Origin: Filosporella fistucella
Taxonomy: Eukaryota > Ascomycota > Leotiomycetes > Helotiales
Assembly (NCBI GenBank): GCA_030077755.1
Contig: JAQJZZ010000010.1
Coordinates: forward strand, 6,076,001-6,140,000
Direction: 5' to 3'
DNA length: 64,000 bases
Part shown: piece after piece, positions 33,735 to 39,714 of the stretch
Numbering within the stretch: position 1 is the first letter of the stretch
How the letters are laid out: every line of letters begins with the position of its first letter
Made by a program: the position numbers and the translations under genes
The notes under the pieces: model-generated
Seen by the model: the letters and a program-made list of their open reading frames with translations, nothing else
The model's database searches: none
What the model was told of the DNA's origin: nothing

Positions 33735-34955
33735 CTAGTTTCCCTTTGCTGCCTTTGCCTTCTTTGCGGCGATCTGAGCTTCAGTGTGGTGTGGCTCTCT
33801 TGCCTCAACCTCGACATCGCGGGCAGTCTTAGCTGCCTTTGCCTTCTTTGCGGCGATTTGGGCCTCGGTGTGGTGGGGTTCTCTGGCTTCGACTTCGACG
33901 TCACGAGCATTCTTCGCAGCCTTGGCCTTCTTTGCGGCAATTTGAGCCTCAGTGTGGTGAGCTTCACGCTCCTCAACATCGCGAGCATTCTTGGCAGCTT
34001 TGGCTTTCTTTGCGGCAATTTGAGCCTCAGTGTGGTGGGGTTCTCTAGCCTCGACCTCGACATCACGAGCATTCTTCGCAGCCTTGGCCTTCTTTGCGGC
34101 AATCTGGGCTTCGGTGTGATGAGGTTCTCTGGCTTCAACTTCAACATCGCGGGCGTTCTTTGCGGCCTTGGCCTTCTTCGCAGCGATTTGAGCTTCGGTG
34201 TGGTGAGGCTCACGGGCTTCTACCTCATCACGAGCATTCTTTGCAGCTTTGGCTTTCTTGGCCTGTGCACGTTAGTGAGTGTTGGTGTGCTTGCATGTAA
34301 TATACATACAGCAATTTGTGCCTCGGTGTGGTGTGGCTCACGAGCCTCAACCTCATCACGAGCATTCTTTGCGGCTTTCGCCTTCTTTGCAGCAATCTGC
34401 GCCTCAGTGTGATGTGGCTCGCGGGCCTCGACTTCAACGTCGCGGGCGTTCTTTGCGGCCTTTGCTTTTTTAGCCTGTAAGAGTTAGTGCCTGTTTTGCT
34501 TTGGTCGTTGATATACTGACTGCAATCTGGGCTTCGGTGTGGTGAGGGCTTCTCTCCTCAACGTCACGAGCATTCTTGGCTGCCTTCGCCTTTTTGGCGG
34601 CAATCTGTGCCTCAGTGTGATGTCTTGTTTCCAAGATCTCAACATCTCTTGCATTCTTAGCAGCTTTGGCTTTCTTGGCCTATAAATTGTTAGTGGGGTC
34701 GATATTGGGATGTTCTGAAAACATACGGCGATTTGAGCCTCAGTGTGGTGTCTGTTGACCAAAGGAACTACTGATCGGACCCAAGCAAGCGCACCCTGCG
34801 TATATCAGTGACTGTTCCCAAAAACACCATTTGCCAAATCGTACCTCATCTCTTGTGCTCAATTCCTGTGCCTCTGAAGGAATGACATAGGCCGAAGCCA
34901 AAGGGGCTGAGACCAAAAGGCCCATGGTAATGAGAGTTGAAACGGAAGTATACAT
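33735..34955 (-). CDS. Secreted repeat protein, candidate RiPP precursor
   Basis: Five exons (34955-34845, 34795-34727, 34679-34521, 34474-34310, 34262-33735), introns 46-49 nt, encode 343 residues. A signal peptide (STLITMGLLVSAPLASA) is followed by YVIPSEAQELS, a short spacer and eleven copies of HHTEAQIA. Every copy is followed directly by a basic block beginning AKKAKAAK; ten of the eleven blocks continue with NARD or TARD, and the last ends the protein (KGN). Acidic spacers of 6-8 residues (VEVEAREP and variants) separate units of 26-28 residues. The dibasic KK sites and acidic spacers recall Kex2-processed repeat precursors of fungal dikaritins. Two UstYa/DUF3328 genes lie 1.2-3.7 kb beyond its start. 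No repeat holds Tyr, Phe or Trp. Alternatives: a Kex2-processed secreted repeat protein that is not oxidised, or an Ala/Lys-rich helical surface protein. Confidence 0.85.
33750..34795 (-). repeat. Eleven-unit protein-coding tandem repeat, unit about 78-84 bp
   Basis: Units encode 26-28 residues and are nearly identical in protein but differ at many third codon positions. Three introns interrupt the array, each exactly between the IA codons and the following AKK codons; the last seven units have no intron. Only the acidic spacer varies (VEILETR, VEERSP, VEVEAREP, EVEAREP, VEEREA). Confidence 0.92.
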
Positions 34956-35075
34956 GATGAATAATCGATAAAATCACTGGCCGGCAGTATAAACGAATGA
35001 AGTGAAGTGAGAAAAGAAGCGGATAGGTCGAAGTGGATGAGGGTGAGTGGGTTTGAGAAGGAATGGGCTCACCTC

Positions 35076-35083
35076 CTCTTATA
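35076..35083 (-). promoter_or_regulatory. Probable TATA box of the repeat-protein gene
   Basis: TATAAGAG on the minus strand lies about 120 bp upstream of the ATG at 34955, a reasonable distance for a fungal core promoter with a leader near 90 nt. It is a match by eye; the start site is unknown. Confidence 0.4.
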
Positions 35084-36178: not shown

Positions 36179-37134
36179 ATGTCGTCGAAATATCATCCAG
36201 TTGGCGACGATGAGAAATTCCATGAGATTTTCCCAAGACGTTCGTCGACTTCGACTTCTGATGAGACTCTATTAGAAGAGGAGATGTCGAGGGTGGAGCC
36301 AAGGAAGACGTTCTGTGCGAGGTGGATGTGGATGGCACATGCTGTATTGCTGTTAACTTCGTTCACGATGTTCATGTCTGCAATGTTCACGAGAGCATCG
36401 ACTTTGGAACATGTGAGGAAGTTCTCCGCGTATTGTGAGTACTGAGCTTGAAGCTAAATGCTTTTTCTGATCAAAATAGCTCCTGCTGCTGAAGCTGTCG
36501 AGTACCAAAGAGTCAAATTCAACGCCACAATGGGAGAAGGATCACCATATGTTGGATCCGGCCCAGAGGTTGACAAAGCATGGCATGCAATTTCATACGA
36601 CAGTAAGCAGCATCCTTCATTTCAACGAGAATGCCAAATTGACAATGTCCAGTTGGCGACCAAGTCATCACCGATGAAGAGCTCGATATCATCGAGATGC
36701 CAAAAACACATCTCAGGGCAAAGCACCCAAAGACTGGAAAGGAGGGTTACAGAGTTGGACTTGAAGTCTTCCATCAACTGCATTGCATCAATCTTCTCCG
36801 ACAAGTAACTTACAAAGATTATTACACCAAGCTCGGTAACGGTAACTTTGCTGGCGGTGACGACGAGCTGCAAATGCACACCGGTAAGCACTCTCATTTT
36901 CATACCCTCAGACAATACTAATAATTTTTAGACCATTGCCTCGAGATCCTCCGTATGAACGTTCAATGCAATGCCGACGTCGGCGTCTTTACCTTTTACC
37001 TTCTTGAAGGCGACCCACTTCCATGGCCTGAACTCAACTCTTTCCATCAGTGCAGAAATTTCGACAAAGTCAGAGATTGGGCTCTGGACAATTCTGTAGG
37101 GAATATGGAGAGGGGAGATGTTAGTCCAAACTAG
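36179..37134 (+). CDS. UstYa-family (DUF3328) oxidase, copy 1
   Basis: Four exons (36179-36434, 36480-36602, 36653-36883, 36932-37134), introns 45-50 nt, encode 270 residues. A cytosolic Ser/Glu-rich N-terminus is followed by one membrane helix (about residues 50-70). The lumenal part carries the two family motifs: HQLHC (His167, His170, Cys171, followed by INLLRQ) and DHCLEILR (His205, Cys206). Family members in ustiloxin- and phomopsin-type pathways oxidise and cyclise ribosomal peptides, probably using a metal bound by the His motifs. The second motif and the last 60 residues appear only after the final splice. It lies 1.2 kb from, and divergent to, the repeat-protein gene, which supports a joint pathway. 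Confidence 0.95.
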
Positions 37135-38694
37135 AGGAAAATTGTAGACATTTAGAGAATTGACATAATTTTGAGCATATCTTATTGGGCTTTAACTTGA
37201 CATCTGCGTGAATCGATCCTTTTATGGGGGTCAGTGAGGTGTACAGACTAGAGTGATGTACTTCATTTCGAGGAACCAAATGCTTATAAAATTACAGTAG
37301 AGCAGGGACTGCGAAATGGTACATCAAATTTTCAATTAAAATAGCACACTTAAAGTTTGAATTGGCAGTGATTTACTTTCCCACCTTCCCGTACTCAGAT
37401 TCCCAATGAAAAATTTAGCATCTCTCGTTCGTCCACTAATTAACCTTTCACCCAGGACTCCTTCTTCCTTCCTTTCCTTCACCAATATCTGGATGTTTAA
37501 TTCCATCATTCAAGAACTCCACACCCCAAACCGCCAAGGCACTCCCATACTCAAGTCTCCTAACACGGCTCTGTACTTCCTTTCGGCCAAAACGAGGTTA
37601 GCTCAGTAAGGCAACCCAGCAATGCAATGCATGAGAAGCTTGATCGTCCCGCAACAAGAACTGTCGGCTCTTCCTTCTCAGTTTAAGTGCCTTGCAAGAA
37701 AAACATAATGGGTCGAATAAGAATAGAACCGCTTAATTATGCTGTTCCTTAATCTTAATTGATGTCCTAGAGGGGTTTGTTCTTTGCGGCGCAGGTGCGC
37801 GGTATCATAGGAGAAGCTGATTTGGGCCATGGCCATTTGTTTCAGAGAAGTGGGAAGCGGGATTATGTACAGACAGGAGGGAGGAGCCGGAGCTAATTCT
37901 CCATGAGCCATTTTGAGAGAAATGGGGGACGGGGAATTTTAGTCTTATATGCTAAGTACAATCATAAGGTAGAACATTGGCAGTGAGATAAACAATAGAA
38001 ATGGTTTCCATAGTTGGATCTACAAGATATGCACTTTATGAACTATCCTGTCATGATTAAAGTCGAAACTCCTCTTTGTAACTACTGCTATATCCTCCAC
38101 CAGAGCTCCCAACCCAAACCCCTTATACCTCTCCTCCCTTCCCAACCTCAAAAGTTTCATCCATTCCAACCTGGAATTACTCAACAACTCTGTCAAATTT
38201 GATCATCGGCACCACATCCCTAGAATCTACCACCCCTGTACCTCCCCCTAACTCTCAACGTCGCACCCCGATAAGCGAGTTCCAACACCCGTCTCCACTT
38301 GCCTCTCTCTACTGTCGCAGCTTGAAACAGAGTGTAACTGTCACTAGACTCAATACACCAAAAAGCGAGGATCTGATTATTCGAGCCGCCATGTCTTGCC
38401 TTTCGTCTGATGCAACGGTCGTGACTCGGCTGGAAAGGGACCTGTGCGTTGAGGTGGGTGGGATTTCGTGCTGGATGGCGATTCTGGTTGTGTTCTGTAC
38501 AGACTGGTGCTGGTTGTGAGGAAGAAGCTGATATTCATTCGTTTTTTTAATTATCCTTACGCAAGAACTGGTTTCTTTATTTTCTATTGGGAACTGGATT
38601 CTGTCTATACCTCTCTTCACATTTCTTCTCGCATCCTGTCTGCCTTGGATTGAATCGTTATCATTCCAGACTCCGTCGACATAAATCAAGCACC
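37135..38694. other. Intergenic stretch between the two UstY genes
   Basis: About 1.6 kb between two genes on the same strand. Several small open frames (38199-38519 and overlapping ones) show no family match. The right end is the promoter of the second UstY gene. Confidence 0.45.
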
Positions 38695-39714
38695 ATGGCA
38701 AATATCAAAGAATCCCCTTACTCTACCCTGAACCTCCACGACCACGACGACCTCGACCACGATTTAGAAAACGATAATGATTCCGATACCACTCTCGCAT
38801 CAGATGGCTTCTTAGGCCAGAAATCAGCTCATCGTATCTCTCGATATGAACGCTCTTCACGATTAGCTCTTGTCTTGACTTGGATACGTTGGAGTATTGT
38901 GGTATTTCTACAGGGTGTAATAATCATGTTGCTGTTACCAACTAGCGGTGTTCTGACCGAAGGGTGGAGCATGGGCGGTGCGCTGAGTGCGGTGACTGGG
39001 AAATGGGATATCGTTAAGACGGAGACTGGTGGCGATGTCAATGGGCTTTATGTTCCTAGTGAGTAGTCACATACAGTGAGCTAGACAATAGAACTAACAA
39101 GAATAGAATCACACAAGTACACACTTCTCACGCCAGAGGAGGAAAGATTCGTACCAAATATGACGAGCGATGCCAATAGAATGGAGATTAGGAAGAACTG
39201 GGATATGCTTATGCCTCGTATGCATCACCTGAGCTGAATTAAGTAAGACTGCGTGCTGATAAAAATGAATAGTTGGAAGTGGAAGCGTCTCTATCCCAGA
39301 TTATGAGCAACATCCCATGTTAGGCAAGCCCATCATCGACGACCCAATCCGTTCCGGCCCACTATTCGAAGCCTCGTGGACACACGCACTACACTGCGTA
39401 AGTATCTCCTTCCTTCCTGATTGAGCTAAAGCTTACATGGCCAGCTCTATTACACAGTAGACACCTACCATCAACTCGTCGTCAACCAAAAATTTGGCTT
39501 CGATGGCGAAAGAAATGATTACCATGCAGCACACTGTTTCGAGTATCTTCGGAATCAGATATTATGTATGTCCGATATGACATTAGAGGGATCAGAGAGT
39601 GTACTGGATGCTACGGGTAACGGGCAAGCACATATGTGTAGGAACAGAGAGGAGGCTATCGCTTGGATTGAGAAGAGAAGGGTAGATGATATCCAGTCAA
39701 TTGTGGGCCCTTAG
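38695..39714 (+). CDS. UstYa-family (DUF3328) oxidase, copy 2
   Basis: Four exons (38695-39058, 39107-39217, 39273-39397, 39445-39714), introns 47-55 nt, encode 289 residues. The N-terminus is Asp/His-rich (HDHDDLDHDLENDND). One membrane helix follows at about residues 58-82. The lumenal part has two full H-x2-H-C motifs: HALHC (residues 196-200) and HAAHC (227-231), 26 residues apart, with CFEYLRNQILC after the second. The sequence differs much from copy 1, so this is not a recent duplicate; known RiPP pathways often need two such proteins acting together. Its 3' end lies 97 bp from the stop of the permease gene on the other strand. Confidence 0.94.

What the first reader, a model, noticed from the sequence alone, without database searches (positions are those of the whole stretch)
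33735..39714. Repeat precursor next to two UstYa-type oxidases: a candidate new fungal RiPP locus
A secreted 343-residue protein with eleven tandem units is divergent from two unlike UstYa/DUF3328 genes with HQLHC, HALHC and HAAHC motifs, all within 6 kb. In dikaritin pathways this combination makes oxidised cyclic peptides from repeated cores. The repeat sequence matches no core I recognise. Seen: genes, motifs, repeats. Known: the role of UstY proteins in ustiloxin-like pathways. Inferred: this locus makes a peptide product.
Basis: partly seen in the sequence, partly recalled or inferred. Interest (0 to 1): 0.92.

Follow-up and report, generated by a model that had tools for sequence, protein, structure and literature searches.

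The report
Fungal repeat-peptide gene with oxidase pair
A fungal gene encodes eleven copies of one short peptide next to two oxidase genes that probably modify it; similar gene neighbourhoods occur in distant fungi, which suggests a conserved, still uncharacterised signal-like peptide rather than a one-off toxin.

Summary
Added here: (1) the decapeptide HHTEAQIAAK is nearly invariant in 164 units of 28 precursors; (2) in 163 of 164 units it follows Lys/Arg plus zero to five in-register X-Ala/X-Pro dipeptides, the Kex2+Ste13 signature of alpha-pheromones, which Le Marquer et al. call absent from cyclic-toxin precursors; (3) locus tags or equal contig lengths place a homologue of one or both oxidases near the precursor in 9 of 15 named relatives (two contrary Y1 cases); (4) the core has no Tyr, so UstY chemistry here would differ from Tyr-ether chemistry; His-to-Ile coupling is my proposal. 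A second precursor without UstY neighbours lies elsewhere in this genome. Best reading: a conserved, pheromone-like matured, UstY-modified secreted peptide; modification and function are unproven.

The parts
33735..34955 (-). Repeat precursor gene, 343 aa. Exons 34955-34845, 34795-34727, 34679-34521, 34474-34310, 34262-33735. Signal-peptide-like start, then 11 cores HHTEAQIAAK..; no Tyr/Trp/Phe in the units
   Evidence: relatives
33738..34750 (-). The eleven repeat units. Introns 2, 3 and 4 all fall at the same place in a unit (after HHTEAQIA, phase 0; units 1, 3 and 5)
34956..36178 (.). 1.2 kb divergent intergenic region, possibly a shared promoter of precursor and UstYa-1 (inference, not tested)
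36179..37134 (+). UstYa-1 (Y1), 270 aa, exons 36179-36434, 36480-36602, 36653-36883, 36932-37134; HQLHC and HTDHC; N-terminal helix, probably a membrane anchor (inference)
   Evidence: model of homologue P0115
38695..39714 (+). UstYa-2 (Y2), 289 aa, exons 38695-39058, 39107-39217, 39273-39397, 39445-39714; HALHC and HAAHC; N-terminal helix, probably a membrane anchor (inference)
   Evidence: model of homologue P0032

Best explanation
The locus makes a secreted, modified peptide. The precursor enters the secretory pathway. A kexin-type protease cuts after Arg (Lys-Arg in many relatives). A Ste13-type dipeptidyl aminopeptidase strips the X-Pro/X-Ala dipeptides until it meets His-His, giving a free N-terminus His-His-Thr-Glu-Ala-Gln-Ile-Ala-Ala-Lys followed by a Lys/Ala-rich tail of uncertain end. 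The two probably membrane-anchored UstYa-family oxidases act on this core. Shown here: genes, repeats, selection on the core, recurring neighbourhood. Inferred from a strong sequence pattern: the proteolytic maturation. Inferred from linkage and intact motifs: oxidation by Y1/Y2. Speculative: the bond formed (my guess: His imidazole to Ile7). The near-invariant core fits an endogenous, hormone-like signal better than a fast-evolving toxin; that role is inference.
Against: No expression, mass or genetic data. The window precursor has single Arg, not KR, before its cores; the KK inside each unit could be cut instead. No Tyr, whereas 65.6% of repeats in DUF3328-linked KEPs have one (PMC7329392). 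A paralogue with four intact cores has no UstYa match nearby. In Scytalidium and in Xylogone the listed Y1 homologue is on another contig than the precursor. Five of 15 named precursors gave no linkage information, and for most of the nine only one of the two oxidases was seen. One relative (P0006) holds a unit that has lost HHTE.
Confidence: 0.66

Rival explanations
1. HHTEAQIAAK is a recognition or docking element for the UstY enzymes (or a spacer), and the true modified core is another segment, as the DEFGPW..DEFGSW segment in most relatives.
For: 24 of 29 precursors carry both kinds of segment; DEFG segments contain Phe and Trp; recognition elements can be more conserved than cores (PMC12048977, passage).
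Against: The window, Botryotinia and Ciborinia precursors have no DEFG segment while HH cores persist (P0026, probably mis-spliced, and P0028 also lack it); the X-A/X-P ladder marks HH as a mature N-terminus in 163 of 164 units.
Confidence: 0.15
2. A linear, unmodified pheromone- or hormone-like peptide; the adjacent UstY pair acts on something else, or only on the DEFG segment where that exists.
For: STE13 signature typical of unmodified alpha-pheromones (PMC6339444); no Tyr; paralogue without UstY neighbours; Lys/Ala-rich tail may be helical (inspection only).
Against: UstY homologue near the precursor in 9 of 15 named relatives; both enzymes have intact motifs in this species, where no DEFG segment was found (a weak exon-by-exon test).
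Confidence: 0.15
3. Chance neighbours: a structural repeat protein beside unrelated UstY genes.
For: UstY genes are a multi-copy family, and other UstYa members act outside RiPP pathways, such as in cyclochlorotine biosynthesis (recalled).
Against: The neighbourhood recurs in relatives of at least two checked classes besides the window's own; chance estimate near 1e-5 (mine).
Confidence: 0.04

Closest known systems
KEP type G-3 (#6) of Umemura 2020 (PMC7329392)
   Same: Repeat precursor with di-histidine motif, next to DUF3328 genes in 57 of 64; 7 of the 11 named genera with HHTEAQIA precursors here are in its genus list (Capronia, Talaromyces, Botryotinia, Fonsecaea, Cladophialophora, Scytalidium, Trichoderma)
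   Different: Its profile is in a figure and its members in a supplement, neither readable here, so identity of the repeat is inferred. The sections I read mention no STE13 ladder and no fixed UstY pair for it.
Dikaritins (ustiloxin, phomopsin, asperipin-2a, victorin)
   Same: Secreted multi-core precursor, UstYa-family genes in the locus
   Different: No Tyr in core; X-A/X-P ladder present; no tyrosinase, methyltransferase or peptidase domain in the 18 of 62 neighbouring ORFs that I scanned
Ascomycete alpha-pheromone precursors
   Same: Kex2 site followed by in-register X-A/X-P dipeptides before each copy
   Different: Core unlike known pheromones (recalled, not tested); UstY genes nearby, which pheromone-type KEPs lack with three exceptions (PMC7329392)
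KEP type G-8 (#15), possibly the HHAGKKTG repeat of Sporothrix (P0028)
   Same: His-His after R-EP or R-AP in 5 of 5 units; Sporothrix is in its genus list
   Different: Different residues after His-His; no Ile; its own UstY linkage not examined here

Membership tests
Dikaritin RiPP | Secreted precursor with tandem cores | tested here: met
   signal peptide judged by eye only
Dikaritin RiPP | UstYa/DUF3328 genes in the locus with two HxxHC motifs | tested here: met
Dikaritin RiPP | Tyr (or Phe, as in victorin) in the core as coupling partner | tested here: not met
   No Y/W/F in any window unit; 2 of 164 units, taken to the next Arg, in all precursors
Dikaritin RiPP | Absence of STE13 signature (as described in PMC6339444) | tested here: not met
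   Ladder rule fits 163 of 164 units, 129 of them with at least one dipeptide
Dikaritin RiPP | Oxidatively cyclised product | not testable with these tools
   Needs mass spectrometry
KEP (Kex2-processed repeat protein) | At least 3 repeats of 8 aa or more between KR/KK/RK/RR | tested here: met
   KK once per unit (rule); no KR, RR or RK, so the likelier cut is single Arg
KEP type G-3 | HMM profile of the type | tested here: inconclusive
   Profile not readable; His-His motif, genera and DUF3328 linkage agree
UstYa family PF11807 | Profile match over cut-off | tested here: met
   Y1 185.4, Y2 57.0 bits, cut-off 25
Alpha-pheromone precursor | Conserved pheromone peptide sequence | not tested
   Core judged unlike known pheromones from memory only

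The most novel reading that the evidence does not exclude
A deeply conserved fungal peptide hormone that is both matured like a mating pheromone (Kex2 then Ste13, exposing His-His) and oxidised by a dedicated UstY pair, with a Tyr-free bond, for example between an N-terminal His imidazole and Ile7, by analogy with the N-terminal-Tyr-to-Ile bond of ustiloxins.
Probability: 0.25. Interest if true: 0.87.

Novelty: new variant of a known kind. Interest (0 to 1): 0.62.

Why it matters
Characterised dikaritins are few (five named in a 2022 review, PMC10512285, passage) and several are toxins. A nearly invariant core kept near UstY oxidases in distant ascomycetes would point to an endogenous role for UstY-modified peptides, and a Tyr-free His-His core would widen known UstY chemistry. 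The precise N-terminus predicted here makes the product searchable by mass.

Tried and rejected
Paper text searches for HHTEAQIA and shorter pieces (0 papers) and for DEFGPW/DEFGSW/HHTEAQI/EFGSWVDK (one unrelated paper) found no report; supplements were not readable. Trichoderma RiPP 'cluster 55' (PMC7099791, outline and one section) has a different predicted core. The lichen RiPP survey (PMC12048977, passages) names Icmadophila as RiPP-rich; the passages shown do not mention this repeat. The Sclerotinia survey (PMC6941272, passages) reports four adjacent DUF3328 pairs there; the passages do not mention this repeat. PMC13278821 was opened for a 'UstYa' hit that was an author name. PDB by sequence: 0 matches for Y1; Y2 was not searched. 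Models of the two homologues are of middling confidence (mean pLDDT 68.6 and 69.8); each HxxHC motif lies in a helix (positions). Foldseek of the Y1-type model against PDB gave 66 matches with E up to 10, none at 0.001; the Y2-type model was not searched. Antisense ORFs over the array are taken as by-products of the repeat. A horizontal origin was considered: the Y2 tree (32 of 85 hits chosen by me plus window) needs 8 label changes against a least possible 4, with Xylogone beside Trichoderma and two Dothideomycetes among Leotiomycetes; this does not separate transfer from loss.
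Full report
What is there. The window lies in a 45.77 Mb, 19-contig fungal assembly. The closest named relatives of Y1 are mostly helotialean (recalled), with a 92%-identical match over 77% of Y1 from a Mollisiaceae isolate (family placed in Helotiales), so the host is probably a helotialean fungus (inference). The minus-strand gene 34955-33735 splices to 343 aa with eleven units. Y1 (36179-37134) and Y2 (38695-39714) lie on the plus strand, both over the PF11807 cut-off.

Is it more than chance. In the first 16 codons the 11 units show 440 synonymous and 0 non-synonymous pairwise codon differences. 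UstYa matches are sparse in the genome (27 exon matches; about 20 loci by my grouping).

Relatives. The precursor search gave 28 proteins (only the 7995 candidates sharing most words were scored). With the window that is 29 proteins, of which 28 hold 164 cores by the pattern HHT[E/A] (P0028 holds none). That pattern fixes positions 1-3, so I also anchored on the residues after position 4: 163 of 164 units so found begin HHTE; the one exception is a degenerate unit of P0006. In one search, position 4 is E in 164; position 5 is 162, 6 and 7 are 163, 8 is 157, 9 and 10 are 162 of 164; beyond that the sequence is looser (position 11: E 108, K 45). P0026 and P0027 look mis-spliced, yet were kept in the counts. 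Twenty-four of the 29 also carry DEFG-type segments (DEFGPW..DEFGSW in most); the window, P0003, P0004, P0026 and P0028 lack them.

Maturation signature. Between the last Lys/Arg and His-His there are 0, 2, 4, 6, 8 or 10 residues, X-Ala/X-Pro in register, in 163 of 164 units (34 with none); the exception is the first unit of P0012, which has no K/R between its start and the first core. Examples are R-DAVADPEAEA-HH and KR-SPSPSP-HH. Controls: 406 of 5612 other positions of the same proteins fit, and 20 of 60 or 1 of 60 DEFG segments (60 of 107 occurrences tested, the rest lying more than 9 residues from a K/R, count). Le Marquer et al. (PMC6339444; passages and sections 10 and 15 read) state that this signature is generally confined to alpha-pheromones in Ascomycota and is absent from cyclic toxin and epichloecyclin precursors. 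Here it occurs together with UstY genes. Matches for a kexin-type P-domain (one locus) and DPPIV (two loci) exist in the genome.

Linkage. Of 15 precursors with a named organism, nine have a Y1 or Y2 homologue with a near locus tag (six) or only equal contig length (three), as listed under evidence; contig identity is inferred from equal lengths. Only Varicellaria shows both Y1 and Y2. Against: Scytalidium's and Xylogone's listed Y1 homologues lie on other contigs than their precursors. For the remaining five (Talaromyces amestolkiae, Botryotinia narcissicola, Fonsecaea erecta, Cladophialophora immunda, Sporothrix) no homologue from the same organism was listed; hits are 90% cluster representatives and the Y1 list was cut at 120 of 137. 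Adjacent Y1/Y2 tags also occur in Venustampulla, Chlorociboria, Hymenoscyphus, Fonsecaea monophora and Bathelium. Classes were checked for Varicellaria, Capronia and Microthyrium; the others are recalled. For motif counts 91 of the 120 listed Y1 hits and 67 of the 85 Y2 hits (those of 200 aa or more) were aligned with the window proteins; the Y1 set includes distant homologues that may not be orthologues, and the misses are mostly gaps or odd gene models.

Second precursor. The genome holds another gene at C7 from 1212400 with four intact cores and a degenerate HHLGVK unit. The only UstYa match listed on that contig is about 349 kb away. It could be served in trans by Y1/Y2, or be unmodified; it speaks against strict dependence on linkage.

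Known or new. Umemura 2020 (PMC7329392; abstract and sections 6, 7, 9, 13 read) defines KEP type G-3: 64 proteins in 20 genera, 57 with DUF3328 within 15 genes, di-His motif. Motif and genera match, so I file the locus as very probably G-3, unproven because the profile was not readable. A review of 2022 names five reported dikaritins (PMC10512285, passages); from memory none has this core. Searches showed me no product in the listings; subscription papers and supplements were not searched.

Mechanism. Ustiloxins and phomopsins join the N-terminal Tyr side chain to an internal Ile; victorin joins Phe to Leu (PMC9233826, passages). In HHTEAQIAAK the only aromatic-type side chains are the two His and the only branched aliphatic one is Ile7, all nearly invariant. 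A His-to-Ile bond is therefore the simplest analogue, but it is my proposal, and the Sporothrix variant without Ile does not fit it. UstYs can also desaturate residues (phomopsin work cited in PMC10512285), so a cyclic product is not assured.

Neighbours. No tyrosinase, methyltransferase or peptidase domain showed in 18 flanking ORFs scanned, out of 62 ORFs of 110 aa or more at 15-55 kb; a purine/cytosine-type permease and a Zn2Cys6 regulator lie beyond Y2, a weak lectin match and a GH30 match on the precursor side. Genes of small exons may be missed.

Verdict. Observation confirmed; the RiPP-type reading is probable; 'new locus' is reduced to a new variant and better description of a known but uncharacterised type.

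Noticed in passing
G000 contig C7, 1212400 to about 1212990 (L015, L016, L017): Second precursor with four intact HHTEAQIAAK cores, one degenerate unit and in-frame stops that may be introns; no UstY match nearby.
   Followed up: partly
window 34726-34680, 34520-34475, 34309-34263: Three introns sit at the identical place in units 1, 3 and 5 (after HHTEAQIA); relative P0026 seems to read through the same intron, so the ancestral unit probably carried it.
   Followed up: partly
window 45522-48167 (-): 882-aa open frame with Zn2Cys6 and fungal transcription factor domains, 6 kb beyond Y2; possible regulator, no evidence.
   Followed up: no
window 30922-31503 (+): Weak (below cut-off) match to fungal fucose-specific lectin, about 2 kb from the precursor.
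   Followed up: no
P0028 (Sporothrix stenoceras): Related His-His repeat HHAGKKTG after R-EP/AP, maybe type G-8; suggests a wider family of His-His peptides.
   Followed up: partly
Relatives P0001, P0002, P0005 and others: Second repeated segment DEFGPWDSxEDEFGSW, itself a doublet, absent from the window, Botryotinia and Ciborinia precursors.
   Followed up: partly
G000 contig C18:398451-400335: Another close pair of UstYa-family matches in this genome; precursor not looked for.
   Followed up: no
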